Below are positions 28,010-41,469 of a stretch of 42,025 bases of DNA, piece after piece. How positions within the stretch are numbered: position 1 is the first letter of the stretch; each line of letters starts with the position of its first letter. The DNA is from Planctomycetes bacterium GWF2_41_51 (lineage in GTDB: Bacteria; Planctomycetota; Phycisphaerae; Sedimentisphaerales; UBA12454). Where the stretch lies: contig MHXZ01000013.1 of assembly GCA_001825665.1 (NCBI GenBank), forward strand, positions 1 to 42,025. Direction: 5' to 3'. The position numbers and the translations under genes were made by a program. The notes under the pieces are model-generated. The model saw nothing but the letters and a program-made list of their open reading frames with translations, was not told the DNA's origin and made no database searches.

Positions 28010-28669
28010 TTAGTTGCCTCCATTTGGGACATTCATTTCCATAGCCAGTAAATTAACCTGAACATCTGGTTCAACAGGCAGCAACCGCAGATATTTAGTG
28101 AATTGTGCAAGCATAAAACCTGCTGCGATATTTGCACAGTAAATTGTTGTTTTCGCTGTACAAGGGCCGGCATAAGCCTGCTCTGCTGCAAAAAGAGTCT
28201 GAGGGTAATATTTCCGGCTTTTCTCATCATAGGCGGTTATTACACGCAATACTTCAGCGCTCATTCGCCCGTCACAAAGAAACGATACTTTATCCTTCAA
28301 TGCATCCCAGATAATTTTTCTTGTCTCTATTGAATCGACACAGACAAAAACGTAATTGCCGACAGTAGTTGACCTTTTGAATCGATCCAATACAACTTCA
28401 ATAACTAATTCAGGATTCATCTGCCTGCAGAATTCCGCTGTTGCATCTACTTTTGGTTTATGCAAATCTTTTGCCAGATACCCTTGACTTGCCAGATTGC
28501 TGATCTCAACATAATCAAAATCTATAATCTGAAGATGCGGCACTCCTATAGCAGTCAGCTGTAATGAAACTTGTCTTCCAATAGCGCCAACTCCTATTAC
28601 AGTTGCCTTACAATCAAGAATTCTTTGGCGAGGCACAATATCAGCTTGTCTTGAAAATCTATCATCCAT
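28010..28669 (-). CDS. ThiF/MoeB/E1-like ubiquitin-like-protein activating enzyme
   Basis: The protein has 219 residues, a single adenylation domain without the extra domains of eukaryotic E1. FSRQADIV at the N-terminus, the nucleotide loop G26-V-G-A-I-G31, and IIDFDYVEISNLASQGYLAK match the ThiF/MoeB fold; the usual Arg of the NxxR motif is Gln here. AYAGPCTAKTTIYC places Cys170 in a P-C-T context like the thioester cysteine of E1 enzymes, the best candidate for catalysis. It should adenylate the C-terminus of the small Ubl and pass it to the E2-like protein. The start overlaps the JAMM gene by eight bases, with GAGG upstream. Confidence 0.88.
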   Translation of the reverse strand: MDDRFSRQADIVPRQRILDCKATVIGVGAIGRQVSLQLTAIGVPHLQIIDFDYVEISNLASQGYLAKDLHKPKVDATAEFCRQMNPELVIEVVLDRFKRSTTVGNYVFVCVDSIETRKIIWDALKDKVSFLCDGRMSAEVLRVITAYDEKSRKYYPQTLFAAEQAYAGPCTAKTTIYCANIAAGFMLAQFTKYLRLLPVEPDVQVNLLAMEMNVPNGGN

Positions 28670-29402
28670 AAAGCACCTCATCCTCCTGCTCCCAGAAATC
28701 GCTTCTGACAGCAAGTTCATCAATAAATAATTGGCGTTCCACCGGATCCATCTTATCTACCTCAGCGATTAAATCATCGCTTGTAAGCAATGAAAAACTG
28801 CCAGAACTTTTCAATGGTGGTAAATCAGCAAGTGGTTTGTCGTTCAGGATAAGTTTTTCTGATTTATCTTTTAAAATCTCGTCAACGAAGACATTTGCTT
28901 TATACTGCTGTATCCATAAATCTGTATCACTGCCGGCAAATTCACAGTCGTAATCAACATAGACAGGAATCTTCACTTCACCACCGGGGCCGGTATTAAA
29001 TCTTAATCTTGCATAGATGTTTCCATCTTGGGCAATTATTGCCATCACTGCCCAATCGCTGGATCCGAATACTCTCTCAAAAGTCCGTTCGTCCGTAAGA
29101 CTTGGTTCCGGAGATGCGCCGGGATGCGTATGTATCCAATGGCGTGCAAATTCATGTGGTTTTCGTCCTGCTGCAACCTGGTCTTCAAAAAATCCTGATA
29201 TAGCTTCATCATCAAATGAAACTGAAATCGAAGTTACCTTCTGTTTAACTAAAGCAAAATCTGTAACAAACAATAAATCATCAGGTTTTGTTATTCCAAA
29301 GCCGCCGACTTCATTATGTGTCATATCACGCATAAATAATAGTTTTGCCCATGCTGTAGGACTAAACCTCAGCATCGGCTTTTTCTGAATGCAGTTCTTC
29401 AT
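28662..29402 (-). CDS. JAMM/JAB-domain metalloprotease (deubiquitinase-like)
   Basis: The protein has 246 residues. The zinc-protease signature is complete: Glu31 in HNEVGGFGI, then H91-T-H93-PGASPEP-S101-LT-D104, exactly HxHx7SxxD. In bacterial Ubl operons this enzyme trims the Ubl precursor and/or removes Ubl from targets. A C-terminal extension (about 150-246) rich in acidic residues is not part of the JAB fold and may bind partners. AAGGA eight bases before the ATG at 29402 supports this start, giving a 41-base overlap with the E2-like gene; an internal ATG at residue 10 is the alternative. Confidence 0.9.
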   Translation of the reverse strand: MKNCIQKKPMLRFSPTAWAKLLFMRDMTHNEVGGFGITKPDDLLFVTDFALVKQKVTSISVSFDDEAISGFFEDQVAAGRKPHEFARHWIHTHPGASPEPSLTDERTFERVFGSSDWAVMAIIAQDGNIYARLRFNTGPGGEVKIPVYVDYDCEFAGSDTDLWIQQYKANVFVDEILKDKSEKLILNDKPLADLPPLKSSGSFSLLTSDDLIAEVDKMDPVERQLFIDELAVRSDFWEQEDEVLYG

Positions 29403-30378
29403 TTTCGTTTTCCTTTCGTTCTAATTCACAATTTTTGCATAAGCCTTCTTCGTTTAAACAATTCTTACAATACTTTTCTTCACAATCAACACAGGTATTC
29501 ATACAATCTACGCATACAGGTTCGTGGCATTCCTGACATTCAGAAGAGCAGCCGAGGCAGACTGTTGTTTCGCATACTCTGCAATAGGTGCTGCATTGTG
29601 GACAAAATTCGCGATCGCATTTTTCGCAGTAATAGCATTCATCCTGTGATATTGTATCGCCGCAGTCATAACATCCTCTGCCCTCCCAGTCCTCCAGCGA
29701 AATATAAGCGCTATCAGGGTTGTAAGTTCGCAGGATGCTTATAATTAACATGAAGAAATCATTGAATCTTCCCTGTTCTAATGCAGCTCTAATTGCGACA
29801 TGACCGTCACCTTCGCAGAGTCTTTCTCCGCTTACATGGGGATGAGTAACTTCGCTGTTATTGCCGGCAGGGTTTGATTCAATTGCTATTACTCTATAAG
29901 GAGAATCTTCATAGAGCTTTGCTAATTGATTAATGAAAAGCCTTATTTCAAATGGCCCAAGTGAAGTATCATCAAGTACGATATCTTCTGTCATTACAGA
30001 AATTGTTTTTTCCTTGAAGTTGATATTGAGTTTTCCGAATTCCTGCTCTATTTGTAAAAGTTCCTTGAAGATATCGATCAAATTAGGCGTCACTGCTTCA
30101 TCTGAATTAATCAATTCTTTGAATCTCTGCAAGTGTTGTGAAAAATCATTGAGATTTCGTTCTATCCTTGATCTGATGGATTCAGCGCCAATCAGCCAGT
30201 TCTTTTCAACTGCAGTGTCAAAAAGATGTTTATCCTTTATTGTTTCAAGGCATTTTTCATTGAACTCATCCATCACAGTTTGAATCTGCTTTAACCTTGA
30301 GCCGTTAAGCTTTTTTAAGCTATCTAAAAGCAGATTTGACAGCCTTATAAGTTTTCTTTGTTTTTTTCGTTTTTTCAT
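29362..30378 (-). CDS. E2-like conjugating protein fused to a Cys-rich periodic zinc array
   Basis: The protein has 338 residues. Residues 1-110 are helical and charged, probably a coiled coil. Residues about 115-232 read like a UBC fold: LGPFEIRLFINQL, then H179-P-H-V-SGERL-C188-EGDG, which mirrors the HPN...C pattern of E2 enzymes, with C188 as candidate thioester cysteine, then helix FNDFFMLIISILRT. Residues 236-317 hold 21 cysteines, mostly in ten CxxC pairs; from 251 to 307 they follow C-x2-C-x4-C-x2-C-x3 repeated with a strict 15-residue period, consistent with a row of zinc knuckles. This may act like an E3/RING part. ATG 30378 is favoured over ATG 30384 by AAAGGA spacing. Confidence 0.78.
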   Translation of the reverse strand: MKKRKKQRKLIRLSNLLLDSLKKLNGSRLKQIQTVMDEFNEKCLETIKDKHLFDTAVEKNWLIGAESIRSRIERNLNDFSQHLQRFKELINSDEAVTPNLIDIFKELLQIEQEFGKLNINFKEKTISVMTEDIVLDDTSLGPFEIRLFINQLAKLYEDSPYRVIAIESNPAGNNSEVTHPHVSGERLCEGDGHVAIRAALEQGRFNDFFMLIISILRTYNPDSAYISLEDWEGRGCYDCGDTISQDECYYCEKCDREFCPQCSTYCRVCETTVCLGCSSECQECHEPVCVDCMNTCVDCEEKYCKNCLNEEGLCKNCELERKENENEELHSEKADAEV

Positions 30379-30393
30379 AAACATTTCCTTTGC

Positions 30394-30451: not shown

Positions 30452-30697
30452 TTATGCAATCTGTTCTAACACCGCAGATCGCGCGCCGTCGATTTTTGTG
30501 GGCGTTATCGTAACTCGGTCGCCGTCTTGAAGCACATAATCTTTTGAAACAGGCATGCGGTTTACACGGATAAGATTGTCTTCTTCATTTTGCCCTGACA
30601 TCTTTATCTTGAAGAACTGCTCGATAGTTGTGCCCTCAGCAATGTCCAGATGATTGGCGAACCCGCCGCCGCTGTTATTAATAAAAAGTATTTGCAT
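30452..30697 (-). CDS. Ubiquitin-like beta-grasp protein (ThiS/MoaD-like Ubl)
   Basis: The protein has 81 residues. MQILFINNSGGG is a first beta strand and turn, TIEQFFKIKM the helix, and VNRMPVSKDYVLQDGDRVTI the beta-grasp ending seen in ThiS, MoaD and prokaryotic ubiquitin-like proteins. The C-terminus is ITPTKIDGARSAVLEQIA: the only glycine near the end is Gly71, followed by ten residues. The E1 reaction needs a free C-terminal Gly or equivalent, so maturation by the JAMM protease is likely. It is the first gene of the conjugation set, with GAAGGGA before the ATG and a long leader. Confidence 0.85.
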   Translation of the reverse strand: MQILFINNSGGGFANHLDIAEGTTIEQFFKIKMSGQNEEDNLIRVNRMPVSKDYVLQDGDRVTITPTKIDGARSAVLEQIA

Positions 30698-30851: not shown

Positions 30852-31166
30852 TTACGATTTGCTTGTTATCACTTCATAGCTTTTTTGATTAATGCTTCCT
30901 TCAAGAGCAAGCAAGACAGATTCAATGTCTTTTCTTGCCTGTTCCATTACGAGGATTGCTCCTGTTATCTTACCATCACCGCCTTCAACGATTTCAGTTA
31001 CGATAAATTTAAACAGGCCATCTCCGAAATTTTCATTGGTTACCTTTGCAAGTAAAACCTGAAGATTACAGCAATCTTTATCAGGTTCGATAGGCAGCAA
31101 GTCTGAGTGTGGATAAGCATTATATATCACGCGAGCGATATTTAACTTCTCTTTTGTTTTAGGCAT
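30852..31166 (-). CDS. Small protein of unknown function (104 residues)
   Basis: The sequence begins MPKTKEKLNIARVIYNAYPH and has LPIEPDKDCCNLQVLLAKVT and IVTEIVEGGDGKITGAILVM. It is probably a soluble alpha/beta protein with a C-terminal helix (EQARKDIESVLLALEG). AAAGGA precedes the ATG. It lies directly upstream of the Ubl gene. I recognise no family, and nothing in it shows a catalytic motif. Confidence 0.7.
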   Translation of the reverse strand: MPKTKEKLNIARVIYNAYPHSDLLPIEPDKDCCNLQVLLAKVTNENFGDGLFKFIVTEIVEGGDGKITGAILVMEQARKDIESVLLALEGSINQKSYEVITSKS

Positions 31167-31193
31167 AACTTTCCTTTCACTTTTTAAAAAACG

Positions 31194-31484
31194 CTAATCA
31201 TTATTTAACCGGCCGGTTTCTTTGGCGTTTTCCAGATTGATTATCTGCGGGTCTTCACTGTTAATGTCATCAAATACTATGAGCCGAAGTCTGCCTTGCC
31301 AGATTTCAATGCCGATAGACCAACCTTCTCCATCAGCAGCACATTTCTCACCGAAACCATCCGGCTGTATCCAAATCTGACCGCCTTCTGACAAGATTTT
31401 AACTTTTATCTGAGCAGATGGCAGAGAATCGGCACATTGTTCTTTCAGCGTATATTCAGTTATTCTTTTTTCAGTTTGTTTCAT
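31194..31484 (-). CDS. Small protein of unknown function (96 residues)
   Basis: A beta-rich acidic protein with QIKVKILSEGGQIWIQPDGF and GWSIGIEIWQGRLRLIVFDD. A good AAGGA site precedes the ATG. It belongs to the run of short, evenly spaced minus-strand genes that look like accessory genes of a plasmid or integrated element. Function is not recognised. Confidence 0.7.
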   Translation of the reverse strand: MKQTEKRITEYTLKEQCADSLPSAQIKVKILSEGGQIWIQPDGFGEKCAADGEGWSIGIEIWQGRLRLIVFDDINSEDPQIINLENAKETGRLNND

Positions 31485-31496
31485 AACATCCTTTCT

Positions 31497-31718
31497 TTAA
31501 TCCAAACCAATATCCACAATATATTGAAGGAGTTTTGATAAATCATATTCTTCAAAAAATACTTCAGCATCCGGATTTTGAATCGTGCCATCAAACCAGT
31601 TTTTTACGGGCAATGTCGGCAAAGAAACTTTCAGGTCATTGGCTTCAATAACCATCCTTCGCATTTTTTTGCAGATTGAACTTTGACGTTTTACTTTCTC
31701 AAATATTTCATCACACAT
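31497..31718 (-). CDS. Small protein of unknown function (73 residues)
   Basis: The start is fixed by GGAGG five bases before the ATG (MCDEIFEKVKRQ); a TTG twelve bases upstream would be in frame but falls on the ribosome site itself. The N-terminal half is helical and basic, the C-terminal half acidic (FFEEYDLSKLLQYIVD). It sits just after its upstream neighbour's stop. No family is recognised. Confidence 0.65.
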   Translation of the reverse strand: MCDEIFEKVKRQSSICKKMRRMVIEANDLKVSLPTLPVKNWFDGTIQNPDAEVFFEEYDLSKLLQYIVDIGLD

Positions 31719-31730
31719 ATTTGCCTCCAA

Positions 31731-31919
31731 TCATAGAATCATCTTGAATTGTTGATACTGATGTTCAGGAGGGGGGCTTATTAAATTCCCGTTTTCATCT
31801 TCATAATCAACCTGACTGCCGGCGATAAATGCTTGCCCTGTACATACAAACTTGCCGGCAGGATTCTTTTTGAACTCCTGACAAACGAACCCTGTGGTAA
31901 TCTTGATAAACTTATTCAT
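31731..31919 (-). CDS. Small mobile-element-type protein (62 residues)
   Basis: The pattern KFIKITTGFVCQEFKKN, then GKFVCTGQAFIAG and VDYEDENGN recalls short conserved proteins found on plasmids and integrated elements beside DUF2958 genes. It is probably a single small beta-rich domain. Function is unknown; the resemblance is from memory of the pattern rather than from a search. Confidence 0.65.
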   Translation of the reverse strand: MNKFIKITTGFVCQEFKKNPAGKFVCTGQAFIAGSQVDYEDENGNLISPPPEHQYQQFKMIL

Positions 31920-31931
31920 AATATTTTTCCT

Positions 31932-32153
31932 TCATTTTCTTTTTGCTAAATCAATTGTTACAATCCTTCCTTTACAATCCATCACCTGCAAAACAGGCGG
32001 CATTGAATCGAGGTCTGTCATTATCTGATGTGTAAGCTTTGCGGCATTTTTCGCATTTGAGGCATTGACATCAATAACATAAATAACTCTAAAATTCGGC
32101 TTATTGCCTTTTTCTTTTGGTGGTGGCTGTATCCGTAAATATTTTCTGCTCAT
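31932..32153 (-). CDS. Small mobile-element-type protein (73 residues)
   Basis: The sequence FRVIYVIDVNASNAKNAAKL and MPPVLQVMDCKGRIVTIDL gives a beta-alpha-beta pattern that I associate with short element-borne proteins next to DUF2958 genes. Its ATG overlaps the stop of the DUF2958 gene by four bases (ATGA), so the two are translationally coupled. Function is unknown. Confidence 0.7.
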   Translation of the reverse strand: MSRKYLRIQPPPKEKGNKPNFRVIYVIDVNASNAKNAAKLTHQIMTDLDSMPPVLQVMDCKGRIVTIDLAKRK

Positions 32154-32467
32154 TTCTTCACCTCATTGAATAATTCAGGTGCGATTTCTTCGAGAGTTTT
32201 TGGCTTAAAGTACAAATCACGTTCTATTGGCAAGCCGAGAGAGCCTCTGACGGATTCCAGTTCCTTCAGACTGAAATAGCCAAGTTCTTTCTCGAAGCCC
32301 TCAACAAGACCGAAGAAAGTATCTTCACCATCAAACTCAGTTGCGTACCATGTCCAATTTGAATCTGGTGTGAAGAATTTGGCATGCACAACTGTTTTGC
32401 CGCCTTTATCTTCCTGGGCATAAAGCGGAGGCAGTTTTTTTCTGATTTCTTTTGTTAATAGTTTCAT
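32150..32467 (-). CDS. DUF2958-family protein
   Basis: The protein has 105 residues. KLLTKEIRKKLPPLYAQEDK, then FFTPDSNWTWYATEFDGED and GYFSLKELESVRGSLGLPIE are the hallmarks of DUF2958, a family common on conjugative plasmids and integrative elements, often near antirestriction or DNA-handling genes. The start at ATG 32467 is decided by the terminator just upstream and by GAAAGG before it; a longer reading frame would run into the hairpin. Its biochemical role is unknown. Confidence 0.85.
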   Translation of the reverse strand: MKLLTKEIRKKLPPLYAQEDKGGKTVVHAKFFTPDSNWTWYATEFDGEDTFFGLVEGFEKELGYFSLKELESVRGSLGLPIERDLYFKPKTLEEIAPELFNEVKK

Positions 32468-32499
32468 TTTTTGCCTTTCTTTGAAAAGATTTGTTGAAC

Positions 32500-32524
32500 A
32501 AAAAAGCATCCGATGGATGCTTTT
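32500..32524 (-). terminator. Intrinsic terminator after the GHKL ATPase gene
   Basis: AAAAGCATCC and GGATGCTTTT are perfect ten-base arms with a three-base loop. On the minus strand the hairpin ends in TTTTTT. It separates the upstream ATPase part of the operon from the DUF2958-to-E1 part. Confidence 0.8.
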
Positions 32525-32546: not shown

Positions 32547-34172
32547 CTAATCAGAATCAGCAGGGCGATTTACTCTCTGCCTTCGGCCATCCTTGAAAAC
32601 AATCTCAAGACTCTCATCTGAAAATATGGTTATCTTCTGCCATTTTTCATAAAGCGGGGAAAGCTTGCGTATAAGTTGTTGCCTGACAGTTTCATAAGGG
32701 CCAATAAGCTCATTCCAGAATTCATCCAGCTCTTTTTCAAAGTCGTAAAGCTGTGTATCGTAGCTGTCGCCTTCATCGCTGTAACCGCCAAAATGAAACC
32801 ATATACTTTCAGATGAGATATGTTTTCTTGCATCTTTTGTTACACATATAGTATGTTCATACCACTTGCTTTTGTCTTGTGATTCATCGAAAACTGCCAT
32901 ATCGACATTTGAGCTGAATGTTTGTCCATTGGATGCCTGAACCGTTATTGTCAGTTTATCAAAACAGACAATTTCGCCGCAGTACATTGAATGCCGGAGC
33001 TTTTCATTTTCCTTTATAACTTCAACTTTTGTTACCTTTGGCAGTTTTGTCCAGCTATAACCCATATAACCATCATCGATAGTCACAGGTATAAAGGATT
33101 TATCTTTAAATTCTCCAAGTGCTGCCAACAGATGCGCATTTGTTTCCGCTGTATCATCGTTACAATCTGCATTGCAGCATAAATAACCATTTGTAACTTT
33201 AAAATTCTTCGGGATAGCTATCTCTACAGGTTCGGTCGAATCGCCGCTTAGAAGGCCGACTCTAAACTGAGGCTGGGCTTCCTGTAATTCAATACCGAGT
33301 TTTTTGGCGCGAAGGTAGTCTTCATAGTAGAGGGTATGACTTTTCTGACGCTGAAAATATCTATAATATTCAACCTCAATGGCAGCCATTAATTGTTTAT
33401 AAGCTTGATTTTCTACCAGCCTTGTTCTTGCAGGAAGCATAAGTCTGATATCCGTCTGGTCTGTAATATCCACCAGTATTGACAAACTTTGCCTGCTTTT
33501 ATTCGGAAAATCATCTATCTGTATAACCTGCCCATGAAAATTCACAAGCACTCTGTCGTAATACACTGGTGATGTCCATAGACTGTGATATTTGGATATA
33601 TCCTTCGTCACCTCAATCCTGCAGCCGGGTTTATCATAATATACGGCACTATTGCTGCAAAATGGCATTGAATGGCAGTATTTACCATCAACAATTACCC
33701 TGATTCCCGCAAATATGGCGTGCTTTTCAACAATGTCCATATCCCATGGCTTTTCATCATTAAATTCAAGTATCGTTCCTTTGATATAATTTTCAGATTT
33801 TGTGACAGTAACGGGTGTGCCGGTCCAGCTGTGCTTGCTAATGATAAGTTTTGAGTTTTCCGAGATAATAGTTACCTGTCTTGGCGCAAGACAGAATAAT
33901 CCTACACCGGCAGGATCCTCACCAGCTTCTAATTTTTCATCCCAGCCGCTGCCACCTAAATCCAGCAGTTTATGAAAATCCTGAATACCAGAGCCATTAT
34001 CTTTGACCTTTACAAGATTATTTTTGTTTGTGATTCTGACTTCCGTCGCTCCGGCCCTTCGGGCATTTTGCAGAATTTCTATTACTCTGCCATCAATACT
34101 GCCCGTGAAAAGGCGAGAGGCTTTTGTCAACAGCCTTGGATTAACTTTAGCAGATATAATTTGTTCATTCAT
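32547..34172 (-). CDS. GHKL-superfamily ATPase (HSP90/MutL/MORC-like)
   Basis: The protein has 541 residues. The N-terminal GHKL ATP-binding domain is complete: N-box E32-ILQ-N36-ARRAGA, G1 box VKDNGSGI (D58), G2 region EDPAGVGLFCLAPRQV. The part that follows, DITDQTDIRLMLPARTRLVE, resembles the second domain of gyrase/HSP90-like proteins, and the C-terminal 250 residues are unassigned. No histidine-kinase phosphoacceptor or membrane segment is seen. Such ATPases act as ATP-gated clamps or chaperones; the partner here could be DNA or a Ubl-modified protein, which is inference. AAAGG precedes the ATG. Confidence 0.82.
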   Translation of the reverse strand: MNEQIISAKVNPRLLTKASRLFTGSIDGRVIEILQNARRAGATEVRITNKNNLVKVKDNGSGIQDFHKLLDLGGSGWDEKLEAGEDPAGVGLFCLAPRQVTIISENSKLIISKHSWTGTPVTVTKSENYIKGTILEFNDEKPWDMDIVEKHAIFAGIRVIVDGKYCHSMPFCSNSAVYYDKPGCRIEVTKDISKYHSLWTSPVYYDRVLVNFHGQVIQIDDFPNKSRQSLSILVDITDQTDIRLMLPARTRLVENQAYKQLMAAIEVEYYRYFQRQKSHTLYYEDYLRAKKLGIELQEAQPQFRVGLLSGDSTEPVEIAIPKNFKVTNGYLCCNADCNDDTAETNAHLLAALGEFKDKSFIPVTIDDGYMGYSWTKLPKVTKVEVIKENEKLRHSMYCGEIVCFDKLTITVQASNGQTFSSNVDMAVFDESQDKSKWYEHTICVTKDARKHISSESIWFHFGGYSDEGDSYDTQLYDFEKELDEFWNELIGPYETVRQQLIRKLSPLYEKWQKITIFSDESLEIVFKDGRRQRVNRPADSD

Positions 34173-35976: not shown

Positions 35977-38900
35977 TCAATGACATGCGCGAAACCCCTC
36001 GCTATAGCCCATATAGCTTTCGCTACCCGTACTCGTGCTTGAGATTTTACAGTTGCCAACACTTCCGCTCCATAGGCCACCATGAATTATACGAACATTA
36101 TCACTGTATATTGACGATGTCCACTCTTCGACATTACCTGCCATGTCGCATATTCCGTAGCCGTAAGTTCCAAATTCACCAATAATAGTTGTACCATCAG
36201 GATGGCTTGAATCCCGATAATTAGCCATACTGTTATTTATCGCAGCACCGCAACCATAGATGAAACTGCCATCATAGTCCGCCACTGCTTTCCACTCTTC
36301 ATGCGTAGGCAGTCGCCAACCATAATAATTGCAGAACGCCGTTGCACCATACCAACTAACGTATGTTACCGGATGATTACCAAAGCCGTTATCAACAGTA
36401 AATGATTCATCAATAAAATGAATTCTTGCAGCTCCACCATTAATCGCTCCATTCCAATGTATGCCTGTACCTGCGAGATCATAATATGGTTCAGAATAAC
36501 TGATATCATCAATTGCATAAACCAAATTATTGTAAACTGTTATCTGATTAGCACCTTTGGCATCGTTAAGAAATTGACAATATTGAGCATTAGTCGTTTC
36601 ATATTTACTCATATAACCGGTAAATCCTTCTTGACCTGAAACACCGGGATCGTCTATATAAATCCACACTATATCATTTTCGTCATTGTCGGCAATGCCC
36701 CAAAGTTCAACATCATCAATATTCCAACCCGAATATGCATAAGCTCCGAGGATTCCAACTTCATAACTCCACCGTATATAAACTGTTGGTTGATTATCTG
36801 CTACTGCACTAATATCATATTCCTTCTTGTGCCAAACATTTTCAATAATTTCTCCTGTAATTTCCCATACGGTCTGCCAGGTTGTTCCATTATTTGAAAC
36901 TTCAATCGCACCTCTAACATAAGGTGGATAATCCGTATTTAGCCATCTTGCAAATTTGAGATGAACATTGCTGTATCCTGTACAATTAATAGCACTGGTC
37001 GTTAAGAAGAATGGCCCATCAACGTCTATGCTATAATCTCCAGTCAAATTCACACCATAAACATTATTGCCGGTATACCCACTGCTTGGATCTGAATAAC
37101 CATACGATTCTCCGCCTTGGCTTAATGGCAGACCATATTGCCACTGTCCTTCCGTCGTCCAACTTGGATTTGAATCAAGTAGCTGGCTATAAAACATCTC
37201 CAGTTCAGGCAGAGCCGGTACATAACCTACTAACCAATTCTCAGCAAAAATTACAAAGTCAAGGAAATTGACATTCAAATCTCCATTTAAATCTGCTTCT
37301 AACATGAGTTCAGGGTCTGACATAGGATATCCAGGGTCGTTACTTAATAACCATTCATTTGCCAGAATTCCAAAGTCAATCATATCTACATCGCAATCGT
37401 TATCGAAGTCTCCCTCCGTATCATAACATTCATTGCCCTCGAAGATACGGATGTAACCACCAGAAGATACAATGATTTCATTTTTGCCATTTTGATCAAG
37501 ATCAGAAACAATTGCTTGGCCAAAACCTTCTGAAATATTCATTGACCATAGAAGATTAAGTTCATTATCAAGCACATACAAAGCATTATCTGTTCCTTCT
37601 GTAGGTGTCCCTTTAATTGCAACTTCAAGCTTACCATCGCCATTTAAGTCATTTATGAATAAAACATCCAGACCGCTATCCGCAACGGAGAATTCATATT
37701 TAACTGGTAATCCTGATATCGGATTTAATGCAATAATTGAACCAGTCTGAGTTGTTCCATCTTTTTTATTTACGAGGATTTCAGGAATGCCATCTTCATC
37801 AAGATCTGCAAATCCGCCAAGTGTTACCGGCATCACAAAATTATGTTCAAGTCCTGAAATTGGCTCTCCAGATACCGGGTCAAGTACATAGACTCTGCCG
37901 AGAGAGCCACCCCATAAATCCCAGCCATGACTAAAAGATGTTGCGATAATATCCAATCTGCCATTGTTATCAATATCACATAAACCAATACTTGAATCTA
38001 CGAAACCAGAACCTTCAAATTGTTTTCGCCATAAACTGTTTCCGTTTGCGCCTAATAGAAAAGCATAACATTCGCCATCTGTACTTCCATCAGCACCGGT
38101 AACACCATTTGCAACACCGTACCCGCCGTGAAGAACTTCTTTGTCTGTAAATAATCCAGCAACATCTCCTATCGCAGGAGTATATACAGCGGGTCCAATA
38201 TCATAATACCATAACTCATTCATTGTATCGCAGCTGAAAGCTATTGTTCCACGGCACTGCACCCATGGAGCCGCTTTGTATCCTACTAACTCCATTGATC
38301 CGTTTTGATCCAGATCTGTCGCACATCTTGCTATTACAATGCCATAATCTGGATCGACCGAAGTTATAAATGTTTTAACTAAGAAATTAGGTTCGGAAAT
38401 ATCATATGCATTAATTCTCGCAGTTGCTCCATTTTTAATATTCGTAAGAATTTCAGGTTTTCCATCGCTAGTTACATCTGCCAAGGCATTCAAAGATGCG
38501 GTTGTTATAATTTGCCATTTAACCTGTCCAACACTGTCATATACATACAGATTACTGGCATCAGAAACCACAAGCTCTAATACACCATCTCCATCTACAT
38601 CACCGGTCTTCATGTTATTTCCTGGTACATTCCATTTTTCAATAAAAGGTGTGTTACTGGTTCTTGTTCCGGAAGGATATGGATAAAGATTCGAATTGTG
38701 CAGATCATATAAATCAATATTCCAGCCCGAAGGAGTTTGTTGACCGATTTCGAATTTAACAGTTACTGATTTATTGCTGTTCATTGTAACTGTATTTGTA
38801 TTTGCTTTAGACAAGTCGTTATCTGTCCCGCTCCAGGCTTTAACTATGTACCCATCATCGGGTACAGCAGTTAAAATTACAACGGTTTCCTCTCCGTAAG

Positions 38901-40761
38901 TTCCACTCGAAGGAGTTAAAGTTCCATGCCCACCGATAACACTGGTTGAAAGATTATAGCTGATAGATGAATAATTCGCTGTAACTGTCATAGCTCCATT
39001 CATTGAAAATGAAATCATCTGATTGCTGCTTGATATATCTCCTGTCCATCCGCCAAAACTTTTGCCGCTTGCTGTTGAAGGCGCAGTTAATGTTACATTT
39101 GTTCCACAATTTGCAATTTTGGTATAATTGGTAGTTCCCTGGTGTCCTGTAGAACTGCCAATGTTTACATTTGAAGCTCCGGAGGAATTTACAGTTAGTG
39201 TGTATGTTTCAGGTTCAAATATGTAATTTGCTACAACAGTTTTATTGCCATCCATGGTAAATGAGATGGATTGATTGCTATTAGTGACTGAACCAGTCCA
39301 GCCATTAAATCGGCTGCGCGATGCACATGAACCGACATACATTGGTGCCTGTAAATTTACAGTGGTTCCATTTGTTACAGTTTTAGTATAATTGGTCGTC
39401 CCCTGATGTCCTGTATTGCTGTTGATAATTACGTTCGAAGTTCCGGATGAATTGACAGATAATGTGTAATCTGTTGATGTATAGTTTGCGGTAACTGTTT
39501 TTGTACCATTCATAGTAAATGATATTGTTTGATTGCTGCTCGAAACATCTCCTGTCCATCCAGTAAAGCTTTTACCGCCAGATGAAGATGGCGCAGTTAA
39601 AGTAACATTTGTCCCACAGGTTATAGTTTTGGTATAATTCGTAGTTCCGCCATTTCCAGTGCTGCTACTGATACTTACATTTGAAACGCCTGATGAATTT
39701 ACCGATAAAGTATAAGTTTCAGGATCAGATACATAATTGGCTGTAACGGTCTTGTTTCCATCCATTGTAAACGTGATACACAAGTTGCTGCTATTTACAG
39801 AACCTGCCCAGCCATTAAAGCGCAGTCGCAATGAGCAAGAGCCGCTATACTGAGGAGCACAAAGATTAACGCTTGTTCCGCCATTAACGGTTTTCATATA
39901 GGTTGTAGTTCCGGAATGGCCGGTGCTGCTACTGATGCTTACGTTCGAAGCAACTGAACTTTGAACTGTAAGAGCGTATTGTATTGATTTCCAACCTTCA
40001 GCAGAACTGCTGAATGAACTAACGCCGCTTGCAGAATTCCACTGAATACGGATTTTGTCTGGATAAGTACCCGGGCTTGCAGAAACTCCGGAAGGAGGAG
40101 AACTATATGAACTTACAACGGCACAATTAATTACAGGAGTCTGTGGTGTAACATGGTAAGTGTATGGTGGCTGATTACCGTGCAAAAAATCAAAGGTTCC
40201 ATAGACCTCTGCTGTGGAATTCAACGGTTCGTAATTCGATATTATAATATCTTTTGTCCACTCATATTCCCACGCTGTTGTTCCCCAAAGAGATATCCCA
40301 GAATACGACCATTGGCTCATCGTATCATCGCTGAATGAATCATCTTCTTTCAGATAATTTGTGAGATTTCCTTCCATGTGAGAGCCAAATGGTTCGAGTC
40401 TGGCTTTATACAGTATTCTGCTGGATTGTCCTTGTACAGCTAATGTCGGACATATTACCCACAATTTACCAGTTACTTCAGTAATCATATTTGGGTGGTA
40501 GCCGTATGCGGTATTGGCTGTTATAACCTTTACCCAATAATAGTAATGCTGACCTTGTGACACATCTGAATCATCATAGTTTGTGCTGGTATACCATTCT
40601 TTGATGCGGGTTGCAGTAGATGAATTATTCGTTGTATTTCGCCAGATTTCATAGTACGTAGTACCGAAAACGTCAGCAGCGCTGAAGAAACAAAATGAAA
40701 TGATAAAAATAAAACGAATCAAACTTTGGTTACGATATAATACGCTAAAATGCGAACACAT
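35977..40761 (-). CDS. Giant secreted modular protein: InlB-type repeats, FG-GAP propeller, dockerin, FGE-sulfatase-fold domain
   Basis: The protein has 1594 residues. AAGGAGAG precedes the ATG and a signal peptide ends near DVFG. Modules in order: an FN3-like piece (YEIWRNTTNNSS, HYYYWVKV), five InlB-type repeats (about 255-670) whose first four alternate between two subtypes, an FG-GAP/VCBS propeller (GDVDGDGVLELVVSD and similar), two dockerin repeats (GDFDNDCDVDMIDFGILANE), a MAM-like sandwich, and a C-terminal FGE-sulfatase/C-type-lectin-like domain (WRLPTHEEWKAVADYDG, DMAGNVEEWTSS, GFRACH). In GGLWSGSVGNC only the second of the two catalytic FGE cysteines is kept, so formylglycine-generating activity is unlikely. 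Probably a cell-surface adhesin or glycan-binding protein. Confidence 0.85.
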   Translation of the reverse strand: MCSHFSVLYRNQSLIRFIFIISFCFFSAADVFGTTYYEIWRNTTNNSSTATRIKEWYTSTNYDDSDVSQGQHYYYWVKVITANTAYGYHPNMITEVTGKLWVICPTLAVQGQSSRILYKARLEPFGSHMEGNLTNYLKEDDSFSDDTMSQWSYSGISLWGTTAWEYEWTKDIIISNYEPLNSTAEVYGTFDFLHGNQPPYTYHVTPQTPVINCAVVSSYSSPPSGVSASPGTYPDKIRIQWNSASGVSSFSSSAEGWKSIQYALTVQSSVASNVSISSSTGHSGTTTYMKTVNGGTSVNLCAPQYSGSCSLRLRFNGWAGSVNSSNLCITFTMDGNKTVTANYVSDPETYTLSVNSSGVSNVSISSSTGNGGTTNYTKTITCGTNVTLTAPSSSGGKSFTGWTGDVSSSNQTISFTMNGTKTVTANYTSTDYTLSVNSSGTSNVIINSNTGHQGTTNYTKTVTNGTTVNLQAPMYVGSCASRSRFNGWTGSVTNSNQSISFTMDGNKTVVANYIFEPETYTLTVNSSGASNVNIGSSTGHQGTTNYTKIANCGTNVTLTAPSTASGKSFGGWTGDISSSNQMISFSMNGAMTVTANYSSISYNLSTSVIGGHGTLTPSSGTYGEETVVILTAVPDDGYIVKAWSGTDNDLSKANTNTVTMNSNKSVTVKFEIGQQTPSGWNIDLYDLHNSNLYPYPSGTRTSNTPFIEKWNVPGNNMKTGDVDGDGVLELVVSDASNLYVYDSVGQVKWQIITTASLNALADVTSDGKPEILTNIKNGATARINAYDISEPNFLVKTFITSVDPDYGIVIARCATDLDQNGSMELVGYKAAPWVQCRGTIAFSCDTMNELWYYDIGPAVYTPAIGDVAGLFTDKEVLHGGYGVANGVTGADGSTDGECYAFLLGANGNSLWRKQFEGSGFVDSSIGLCDIDNNGRLDIIATSFSHGWDLWGGSLGRVYVLDPVSGEPISGLEHNFVMPVTLGGFADLDEDGIPEILVNKKDGTTQTGSIIALNPISGLPVKYEFSVADSGLDVLFINDLNGDGKLEVAIKGTPTEGTDNALYVLDNELNLLWSMNISEGFGQAIVSDLDQNGKNEIIVSSGGYIRIFEGNECYDTEGDFDNDCDVDMIDFGILANEWLLSNDPGYPMSDPELMLEADLNGDLNVNFLDFVIFAENWLVGYVPALPELEMFYSQLLDSNPSWTTEGQWQYGLPLSQGGESYGYSDPSSGYTGNNVYGVNLTGDYSIDVDGPFFLTTSAINCTGYSNVHLKFARWLNTDYPPYVRGAIEVSNNGTTWQTVWEITGEIIENVWHKKEYDISAVADNQPTVYIRWSYEVGILGAYAYSGWNIDDVELWGIADNDENDIVWIYIDDPGVSGQEGFTGYMSKYETTNAQYCQFLNDAKGANQITVYNNLVYAIDDISYSEPYYDLAGTGIHWNGAINGGAARIHFIDESFTVDNGFGNHPVTYVSWYGATAFCNYYGWRLPTHEEWKAVADYDGSFIYGCGAAINNSMANYRDSSHPDGTTIIGEFGTYGYGICDMAGNVEEWTSSIYSDNVRIIHGGLWSGSVGNCKISSTSTGSESYMGYSEGFRACH

Positions 40762-40839: not shown

Positions 40840-41469
40840 TTAGAAACATAATTTTTCCAAGGCATTTTTGACATCGGGCATCATCACATCGGCATAGACC
40901 TGGGTCGTTGTCAGCCGGCTATGACCCAATTGCCTCTGTACAAGACGAAGATTCCAGTTGCTGGCTTTCAAGAGTACACAAGCATAAAAATGACGAGCTG
41001 CATGAATGGAGTATCTTTCTGGCAGTCCTGCGTCACTTGCACATCGCTTGAAAGCTTTTTGAATTGATCTTCTTGCCATATGTTTTCCAGAATGGCTGGA
41101 CATAAATAACGGCTGATCTGGTTCTATGGATTGACCTACAGATTGTTTCCATTTAAAGTAATCTTTAAAATGTTCTCTTAATGTTTCATTAAAAAACACG
41201 ATTCTTCGTTTGCCTCCTTTGCCTTTCCTGACGATTAAATATGAAGTCTGCTGATCTAAAAAAATATCGCCGCAATTCAACGCTGCAATCTCCATCACTC
41301 GCAGCCCTGTGGCTAGTACAAGATGAATCAGGAAATAATCGCGAATAGCGATTTTACCATTTTTGGCTTCTGCGAGTTTCGCTCTGGTTTTGGCTATATC
41401 TAAAAGTTTCTCTGCTTCTTCTTTGTTGAGGTACTTTCCCGGCTCCAAAATCCAATTGTCTTGTTTCAT
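40840..41469 (-). CDS. Tyrosine recombinase, catalytic domain only
   Basis: The protein has 209 residues, about two thirds of the usual length. All catalytic residues are visible: Arg57 in ATGLRVMEI, the Lys hairpin RKGKGGKRR, H156-AAR159, His183 in LGHSRLTTTQ and Tyr192 in VYADV. The N-terminal core-binding (SAM-like) domain of phage integrases and Xer proteins is missing, since the protein begins right at the catalytic domain (YLNKEEAEKLLDIAKTR). It may be a small integrase of the mobile element or a remnant still able to fold. AAGGA lies upstream but rather far from the ATG. Confidence 0.88.
   Translation of the reverse strand: MKQDNWILEPGKYLNKEEAEKLLDIAKTRAKLAEAKNGKIAIRDYFLIHLVLATGLRVMEIAALNCGDIFLDQQTSYLIVRKGKGGKRRIVFFNETLREHFKDYFKWKQSVGQSIEPDQPLFMSSHSGKHMARRSIQKAFKRCASDAGLPERYSIHAARHFYACVLLKASNWNLRLVQRQLGHSRLTTTQVYADVMMPDVKNALEKLCF

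What the first reader, a model, noticed from the sequence alone, without database searches (positions are those of the whole stretch)
29362..30378. E2-like domain fused to a 15-residue-periodic CxxC array
Residues 251-307 follow C-x2-C-x4-C-x2-C-x3 four times with exact 15-residue spacing (Cys 251, 266, 281, 296), with additional CxxC pairs before and after. It is attached to a UBC-like segment with HPHV and a following Cys. An E2 carrying its own zinc-knuckle chain could combine conjugating and E3-like or target-binding functions in one chain. The regularity suggests repeat expansion.
Basis: partly seen in the sequence, partly recalled or inferred. Interest (0 to 1): 0.85.

Follow-up and report, generated by a model that had tools for sequence, protein, structure and literature searches.

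The report
Bacterial E2 with built-in zinc array
A bacterial cousin of the enzymes that attach ubiquitin carries a long chain of cysteine pairs, probably metal-binding, on its own tail, and it travels with a modifier protein, an activating enzyme and a removing enzyme in many Planctomycetota and even in some phages.

Summary
The gene is on the minus strand (29362-30384, 340 aa) and encodes ten in-register CxxC pairs, eight of them at an exact 15-residue period. Residues 97-236 are a real UBC/E2 domain: an AlphaFold model of it (pLDDT 91, pTM 0.86) has only E2-fold enzymes in its top 50 Foldseek rows, and profile comparison aligns H181-P-H...C190 with the HPN...C of canonical E2s (86-91% probability; six scrambled controls at most 4%).

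The protein belongs to a strict four-gene operon, Ubl - E2/zinc array - JAB - E1, with five copies in this genome, matches in 33 of 397 genomes of its class, and copies on IMG/VR phage contigs, at least three with a terminase gene. The E1 cysteine, JAB ligands and E2 HPx...C are conserved.

Best reading: a reversible, mobile Ubl-conjugation cascade whose E2 carries its E3-like or target-docking module in cis. Catalysis is strongly implied; the role of the array is inference. Ubiquitin-type operons in Planctomycetes were reported in 2011 (paper not readable here), so I file it as a new variant of a known kind. A second Planctomycetota E2 clade has the same fusion.

The parts
30452..30697 (-). 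Ubl, 81 aa, beta-grasp ThiS/MoaD/ubiquitin-like modifier; conserved end ...TPTKI(D/E)GA followed by a variable tail
   Evidence: weak Pfam ThiS E=0.002; MoaD-type PDB hit E=0.18; 27-member alignment with invariant G71-A72
29362..30384 (-).
30106..30381 (-). N-terminal helical hairpin of the E2 protein (residues 2-93)
   Evidence: AlphaFold model, two long helices 2-60 and 64-93
29677..30096 (-). UBC/E2 domain (residues 97-236)
   Evidence: AlphaFold model pLDDT 91.1 pTM 0.86; top 50 Foldseek rows all E2-fold enzymes, best 6.0e-3; VIA Z up to 7.8 over 122 residues
29836..29844 (-). H181-P182-H183, the HPN-equivalent motif
   Evidence: H181 and P182 in 70 of 70; aligned to HPN
29815..29817 (-). 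C190, predicted catalytic thioester cysteine
   Evidence: invariant in 70 of 70; aligned to the HPN...C cysteine of canonical E2s
29428..29673 (-). CxxC array (residues 238-319), 10 in-register CxxC pairs, alternating spacing 7/8 (period 15) from residue 253 to 306
28662..29402 (-). JAB/JAMM metalloprotease, 246 aa; E31, H91, H93, S101, D104; overlaps the E2 gene by 41 nt
   Evidence: Pfam Prok-JAB 5.9e-5, just below its cut-off; E31, H91, H93, S101, D104 each 81 of 81
28010..28723 (-). E1, ThiF family, single adenylation domain, 237 aa from TTG (likely true start ATG 28669, just overlapping the JAB gene); Cys188 at 28160-28162
   Evidence: Pfam ThiF 2.3e-23; GxGxxG glycines and C188 in 86 of 86
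30852..31919 (-). small uncharacterised genes (104, 96, 77, 62 aa) upstream, kept near the cassette in related loci
   Evidence: 7-14 of 114 loci each
32150..32509 (-). DUF2958 protein
   Evidence: Pfam 6.4e-17; near the cassette in 25 of 114 loci
32547..34172 (-). GHKL-type ATPase, 541 aa
   Evidence: Pfam HATPase_c_3 1.2e-4, below its cut-off; near the cassette in 15 of 114 loci
40840..41469 (-). tyrosine recombinase (catalytic domain)
   Evidence: Pfam Phage_integrase 6.8e-31; XerA/XerC-type NCBIfam matches below cut-off

Best explanation
It is the conjugating enzyme of a self-contained, reversible ubiquitin-like modification operon (Ubl - E2/zinc array - JAB - E1) carried as an accessory, probably mobile, cassette. 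Likely cycle: (1) the JAB protease trims the variable tail of the Ubl to expose ...(D/E)G-A or ...(D/E)G [inferred]; (2) the ThiF-type E1 adenylates the exposed C-terminus and takes it onto its invariant Cys188 [inferred from conservation]; (3) the Ubl passes to Cys190 of the E2 domain next to the HPH motif [E2 fold and residue conservation shown; chemistry inferred]; (4) no separate E3 gene is kept in the four-gene core, so the probably metal-binding CxxC array on the C-terminus of the E2 acts in cis as the E3-like or target-docking module, with the N-terminal helical hairpin as an oligomerisation or partner-binding part [inference]; (5) the same JAB protease removes the Ubl from targets [inferred]. 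The targets are unknown. Sporadic, multi-copy, sometimes recombinase-adjacent and phage-borne occurrence points to conflict between hosts and mobile elements or phages rather than housekeeping [inference]. My estimate is 0.9 for a working Ubl-conjugation cascade, 0.55 for the array as an in-cis E3/target module, and 0.5 for a role in conflict.
For: E2 fold: (top 50 Foldseek rows all E2-fold enzymes, two of them UFC1; VIA Z up to 7.8, rmsd 3.7, 122 aligned, 17% identity, UBE2S). Homology and motif register: hhalign against UQ_con E2s of the same phylum 86% and 91%, with 6 scrambled or reversed controls at 0.07-4.0%; that UQ_con profile hits solved E2s at 2.9e-17. Catalytic residues: E2 H181, P182, C190 70 of 70; E1 C188 86 of 86; JAB E31/H91/H93/S101/D104 81 of 81. 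Operon: 91 of 114 loci examined hold all four genes and all 91 have the same order and strand (89 directly; in 2 the mechanical E2 ORF runs back over the Ubl); 86 of the 91 are distinct; the 23 others are mostly cut by contig ends. The four proteins co-diverge over 63 distinct loci: Mantel r 0.55-0.73, 0 of 999 permutations reach it for any of the six pairs. Ubl tail: of 101 Ubl with the P-x-K-[IVL]-x-G-A motif, 7 end exactly at A and 94 run 1-48 residues further. Array as metal site: C279 is His in 6 of 70; model pLDDT 90-98 over the array in blocks of ten residues. Accessory/mobile: 5 copies in own genome; 33 of 397 class genomes, with all 5 listed congeners negative; 20 of 392 phylum genomes at E<=0.01, of which 14 (own genome included) are at 1e-40 or better; serine or tyrosine recombinases near some loci; of six IMG/VR contigs with the cassette 2 carry Terminase_6N and a third a terminase large subunit by PHROGs.
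Against: No Pfam or NCBIfam E2 model recognises the domain: 0 of 26 members match an E2 family in Pfam at E<=1, and NCBIfam gave 0 families for this protein. A profile of 68 E2 domains finds no E2 in PDB sequences at E<=10. The Foldseek E-values of the E2 domain are moderate (best 6.0e-3, none <= 1e-3) and VIA Z stays under 8, which the tool's own note calls common. The Ubl is recognised only weakly. No metal, thioester or conjugate is shown. Nothing shows that the array touches the E2 domain or a target. The conflict role rests on distribution only; PADLOC gives generic JAB and E1-E2 matches to the JAB and E1 proteins and none for the E2 or Ubl. Co-divergence may reflect species phylogeny as well as linkage.
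Confidence: 0.7

Rival explanations
1. The cascade conjugates the Ubl, but the CxxC array is not E3-like: it is a structural, dimerisation or nucleic-acid/partner-binding appendage that places the E2 somewhere in the cell.
For: Weak sequence matches of the array are to several functionally unrelated zinc domains (B-box, FYVE, RING and others). Small stand-alone proteins with the same CxxC pattern and no E2 exist (L058, L059). In the UQ_con E2 clade the same kind of array co-exists with separate proteins bearing a RING/PHD-like Cys-His pattern (L153, L164, my reading), so the array need not be the E3 there.
Against: In the window type no other Cys-rich gene is part of the conserved four-gene core, and the array is nearly universal and constant.
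Confidence: 0.3
2. The CxxC array is a redox or metal sensor that switches the ligase on or off.
For: Twenty paired cysteines per chain; no direct evidence.
Against: Cys-to-His substitution at one position (6 of 70) and the model's regular hairpins fit a permanent metal structure better than a disulfide switch.
Confidence: 0.08
3. A ThiS/MoaD-like sulfur-carrier pathway (cofactor synthesis or tRNA thiolation) rather than protein conjugation.
For: The Ubl and E1 best match ThiS/MoaD and ThiF/MoeB families.
Against: A UBC domain with a conserved Cys lies between them; no rhodanese, cysteine desulfurase or cofactor-pathway match among the neighbours scanned; the Ubl end is GA with a tail in most members.
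Confidence: 0.05
4. The E2 domain is an inactive scaffold (UEV-like) and the E1 transfers the Ubl directly.
For: The Asn of HPN is His here, and the domain is far diverged from canonical E2s.
Against: C190 and H181-P182 are invariant in 70 of 70 including phage members; a phage member has HPNVSDHVIC.
Confidence: 0.04

Closest known systems
UQ_con-type E2 operons of Planctomycetota and Caldiarchaeum-type ubiquitin operons (E1, E2, RING, JAB/Rpn11)
   Same: E1 + E2 with HPx...C + JAB + Ubl logic; a UQ_con E2 clade of the same phylum (L153, L164, L165, L166) is fused to a CxxC array with the same 7/8 spacing. A 2014 review says related operons occur in Actinobacteria, Planctomycetes and Acidobacteria (PMC4197634, passages, citing Burroughs 2011).
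   Different: The window's E2 is not matched by UQ_con or any Pfam E2; it has an extra helical hairpin; its core has no separate RING gene; HPH instead of HPN.
Iyer et al. 2006 operon types 6a-6e (PMC1779556; section 14 and part 2 of section 25 read)
   Same: Type 6d: separate Ubl, JAB, E1 and E2; the types are sporadic and partly on mobile elements.
   Different: 6d E2s lack the classical His and have one further downstream; 6d has an alpha-helical fifth protein. 6a-6c are E2-E1(-JAB) fusions; 6e E2/RWD-like domains are inactive. None is described in what I read with a CxxC array on the E2; 'Planctomyc' does not occur in the text.
Bil (BilABCD) antiphage system
   Same: Ubl, E2, JAB and E1 conjugating a Ubl to proteins.
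   Different: Bil E1 has an inactive plus an active adenylation domain and a Cys domain (PMC11354881 passage); the window E1 is a single ThiF domain of 237 aa. No zinc array on the Bil E2 is known to me (recall).
Bub (bacterial ubiquitination-like) operons
   Same: Dedicated bacterial Ubl-conjugation operons, hundreds known (PMC13373217 passages).
   Different: As I recall, Bub works through serine oxyesters; here E1 and E2 keep invariant cysteines. The Bub papers were not readable here.
Type II CBASS Cap2/Cap3
   Same: E1, E2 and JAB chemistry.
   Different: Cap2 is one E2-E1 protein and the target is a CD-NTase (recall); here E1 and E2 are separate, a Ubl is encoded, and no CD-NTase matched in the proteins scanned.

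Membership tests
E2 / UBC superfamily | UBC fold | tested here: met
   model pLDDT 91.1, pTM 0.86; top 50 Foldseek and top 50 VIA rows all E2-fold enzymes
E2 / UBC superfamily | catalytic Cys after an HPx motif, in register with canonical E2s | tested here: met
   70 of 70; hhalign register
E2 / UBC superfamily | match over cut-off to a curated E2 sequence model (Pfam, NCBIfam) | tested here: not met
   Pfam: no E2 family at E<=1 for any of 26 members; NCBIfam: 0 families for this protein. The claim is therefore a divergent homologue, not a member of a named E2 family
E2 / UBC superfamily | thioester with a Ubl | not testable with these tools
   needs biochemistry
RING or other treble-clef E3 | recognised RING/U-box/treble-clef domain | tested here: inconclusive
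   Pfam none for the window protein; PDB sequence matches weak and mixed (B-box 0.0018, FYVE 0.0081); Rim2 zinc finger in Foldseek at E 1.4; the array was not fold-searched alone
Canonical ubiquitin operon with separate RING E3 | UQ_con E2 plus separate RING gene | tested here: not met
   UQ_con matches 34 of 392 phylum genomes but not this genome; no Cys-rich neighbour in the conserved four-gene core
PRTRC cassette | NCBIfam PRTRC models over cut-off | tested here: not met
   E1 vs PRTRC_ThiF 23.4 bits against a cut-off of 144.75; no PRTRC match for Ubl, E2 or JAB
Bil | E1 with inactive plus active adenylation domains and a Cys domain | tested here: not met
   E1 is a single ThiF domain; feature from PMC11354881 passage
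Bub | serine in place of the E1/E2 catalytic cysteine (recalled) | tested here: not met
   invariant C190 and C188
Type II CBASS | E2-E1 fusion (Cap2) with CD-NTase and Cap3 | tested here: not met
   separate E1 and E2 genes; JAB vs Cap3 model 16.6 bits against cut-off 200
Iyer type 6d | E2 lacking the classical His, alpha-helical fifth protein | tested here: not met
   H181 invariant; core is four genes; features from PMC1779556

The most novel reading that the evidence does not exclude
An autonomous E1-E2-JAB-Ubl cascade, spread through Planctomycetota on mobile elements and carried by phages, in which the E2 carries its own multi-zinc E3 in one chain, as a weapon in phage-phage or phage-host conflict. 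Because two E2 clades of the phylum share the fusion, E2-zinc-array proteins would be a bacterial solution to ligase specificity that precedes or parallels separate E3s.
Probability: 0.3. Interest if true: 0.85.

Novelty: new variant of a known kind. Interest (0 to 1): 0.62.

Why it matters
If the array works as an in-cis E3, this is a minimal ubiquitin-like system in which conjugation and targeting sit on one enzyme, which would make the question of how E3s arose directly testable with four small proteins. The cassette is widespread (126 confirmed Ubl relatives in one scan of species genomes) yet its E2 matches no Pfam E2 family. The phage-borne copies suggest that some phages bring their own protein-modification cascade.

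Tried and rejected
Rejected or led nowhere. (1) search for related loci with the single E2 protein found no relatives in genome contigs or viral contigs, and with the E2 alignment it could not run; the Ubl alignment worked. (2) tblastn of the E2 and JAB proteins against INPHARED phages and PLSDB plasmids: no match, so the phage copies come from IMG/VR only. (3) Searching PF14461 in this genome was empty, but the control genomes were empty too, so it says nothing. (4) The fold search of the whole protein was swamped by the helical hairpin; hence the E2-only model. BFVD gave 5 matches at E<=0.001, with low TM-scores. No fold search of the zinc array alone was made. (5) Weak Pfam and PDB matches such as ParcG or a steroid receptor are taken as chance. 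(6) My estimate of the E2-JAB junction over all loci is unreliable, because the JAB model was built from ORFs that run upstream; only the window's own 41-nt overlap is used. (7) 5 of the 91 complete loci are duplicates between or within collections. Rows dropped: L045 and L089 (one contig; in-frame TGA in the array) are in no E2 alignment; of the search for related loci members with an E2 hit, A3 also leaves out contig-cut ones (L066, L076, L077, L093, L115, L124) and L102, L114 and L130 (close or identical copies); L109 is in A3 but not A4; L142-L146 are not in A4; L087 and L109 are not in A5. (8) In one search a simple motif count gave 95 of 100; of the 5 misses, 4 are an artefact of the 250-residue cut (motif present) and L077 is a fragment. 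(9) Five contigs with room downstream lack part of the set (L065, L068, L097: Ubl only; L101: no E1 hit; L118: no JAB or E1); not followed up. (10) Literature: all 10 searches used (one search was useless because it matched on 'ubiquitin' alone). Burroughs 2011, 2009 and 2008, Chambers 2024, Gong 2025 and Ye 2026 are not held, so whether Burroughs 2011 already shows this very cassette could not be checked.

Full report
What was checked. The 15-residue register is not chance: 15 Cys-Cys pairs at spacing 15 against at most 10 in 20,000 permutations.

Relatives. Searches with the protein itself in the two contig collections found nothing. In this genome there are five copies, the window's included: two others at 75-78% identity and two at 44-46%. 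In the phylum, 20 of 392 genomes have a match at E<=0.01; 14 of these (own genome included) are at 1e-40 or better and 6 are weak Cys-rich or partial matches. In the class, 33 of 397 genomes match at E<=1e-10, while the five listed genomes of the same genus have none. A scan of species genomes with the Ubl alignment confirmed 126 relatives and kept the best 80. By their titles, 75 of those 80 are Planctomycetota as I know these names, 3 are labelled otherwise (L070, L076, L095; possibly mis-binned) and 2 are unnamed bacteria. Seven IMG/VR contigs also matched.

The operon. Over 114 loci (the window, 26 from the genome search/get_from_genomes and 87 from the search for related loci) 91 hold Ubl, E2, JAB and E1, always in that order on one strand. 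The two exceptions in the table come from mechanical ORF ends. The other 23 are mostly cut by contig ends, but L065, L068, L097, L101 and L118 are not and lack part of the set, and in L146 the E2 was not detected by the model (see below). Of the 91, 86 are distinct. Over 63 distinct loci the four proteins' distances correlate (Mantel r 0.55-0.73; 0 of 999 permutations reach it in any of six comparisons); this shows shared descent but does not by itself separate linkage from species phylogeny. In the window the E2 and JAB genes overlap by 41 nt.

The enzymes. E1: ThiF fold (2.3e-23) with the GxGxxG glycines and Cys188 in 86 of 86 members. JAB: E31, H91, H93, S101, D104 in 81 of 81. That these are the catalytic residues of such enzymes is established knowledge, recalled. 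Ubl: the end of the conserved part, G71-A72, is invariant in the 27-member alignment. Among the wider set, six members lacked the simple motif: three end in EGG plus further residues, one has DGS, one is cut and one gave no match in the stretch printed. Of 101 with the motif, 7 stop exactly at A and 94 have 1-48 further residues, which suggests processing by the JAB protease; the mature end is not known.

The E2 domain. Pfam sees no E2 in any of 26 members and a profile of 68 domains finds no E2 among solved structures by sequence. The evidence is structural and by profile comparison. The full-length model has mean pLDDT 94.7 and pTM 0.79. The E2-only model (residues 97-236; pLDDT 91.1, pTM 0.86) has only E2-fold enzymes in the top 50 Foldseek rows, best E 6.0e-3 and none below 1e-3, and in the top 50 VIA rows, Z up to 7.8 with rmsd 3.7 over 122 residues. 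UQ_con E2s of the same phylum (alignment A6), which match solved E2s at 2.9e-17, align with the window family at 86% or 91% hhalign probability, HPH...C on HPN...C. Six scrambled or reversed controls gave 0.07-4.0%. A phage member carries HPNVSDHVIC.

The array. In 70 aligned members the paired Cys columns are Cys in 61-70; column 279 is His in 6. The array's weak sequence relatives are B-box, FYVE and RING domains. A finding that puts the fusion in context: the UQ_con E2s L153, L164, L165 and L166 of Planctomycetota carry, after their own E2 domain, CxxC pairs with alternating 7/8 spacing. The window family's model matches these arrays at up to 2.2e-7 per domain, while its E2 part scores nothing significant there. 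L153 and L164 also have neighbouring proteins with a RING/PHD-like Cys-His pattern (my reading of the sequence). Thus E2-array fusion occurs in two E2 clades of one phylum, by common origin or by repeated fusion; I did not test which.

Surroundings. In the window type a GHKL ATPase (15 of 114 loci) and DUF2958 (25 of 114) lie upstream. In another type an AAA+ ATPase (35 of 114) and a helical protein (39 of 114) lie upstream. A tyrosine recombinase lies at 40840-41469; serine or tyrosine recombinases occur near other loci. Of the seven IMG/VR loci, L140 is cut after the Ubl; the other six (L141-L146) hold Ubl, JAB and E1; five have a detected E2, and L146 has an undetected but similarly placed 424-aa protein with HPYLSAGMAGYWRRIC. 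Two of these six contigs carry Terminase_6N, a third a terminase large subunit near the cassette, and L141 a DNA polymerase.

What it most likely does. The conserved residues and fixed gene order make a reversible Ubl-conjugation cascade the best reading (0.9). With no separate E3 in the four-gene core, the array is the natural candidate for E3-like activation or target docking in cis (0.55), but this is inference. Sporadic, multi-copy, sometimes recombinase-adjacent and phage-borne occurrence fits a role in conflict (0.5).

Known or new. Iyer 2006 (section 14 and part 2 of section 25 read) describes five operon types of this general kind, none with a CxxC array on an active E2 in what I read. 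A 2014 review (passages) says that operons related to Caldiarchaeum's ubiquitin operon occur in Planctomycetes, citing Burroughs 2011; that paper was not held, so prior description of this cassette cannot be excluded. The archaeal E1-E2-RING cascade has been reconstituted and its pro-ubiquitin has a nine-residue tail (PMC5654768, passages), a close parallel for the Ubl tail and the JAB. I found no paper on an E2-CxxC array or on a phage-borne E1-E2-JAB-Ubl cassette in the listings; most subscription papers are not in that library.

Noticed in passing
L153 (6528-7733 +), L164 (5178-6089 -), L165 (5215-6180 +), L166 (2611-5709 +): A second Planctomycetota E2 clade, recognised by Pfam UQ_con, is also fused to a CxxC array with 7/8 spacing and sits near JAB and other Cys-rich genes.
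   Followed up: partly
L141-L146 (IMG/VR contigs): Phage contigs carry the whole Ubl-E2-JAB-E1 cassette, some with terminase or DNA polymerase; L144 and L145 have a weak AAA match plus a VWA-like DUF2201 protein just upstream.
   Followed up: partly
L048, L050, L053, L054, L055 Ubl tails: Several Ubl genes share a long tail with a WEPDN stretch after the conserved GA; its meaning is unknown.
   Followed up: no
L045 8057-8857 + (same contig as L089): The E2 gene has an in-frame TGA within the Cys array; pseudogene, recoding or sequencing error.
   Followed up: no
L058 6382-6912 +, L059 9410-9814 -: Small stand-alone proteins with the same CxxC pattern and no E2 domain or cassette found in the stretch held.
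   Followed up: no
L065, L068, L097: Ubl genes without the other three genes although over 6 kb of downstream sequence is held.
   Followed up: no
window 35977-40761 (-): A 1594-aa protein with InlB-like B repeats, FG-GAP, dockerin and FGE-sulfatase domains lies between the recombinase and the ATPase.
   Followed up: no
upstream of the cassette in 35 of 114 loci, e.g. L095 3734-5230: An AAA+ ATPase resembling CDC48 and proteasome-activating nucleotidases, all below NCBIfam cut-offs, often with a helical 320-aa protein; a possible unfolding partner.
   Followed up: partly
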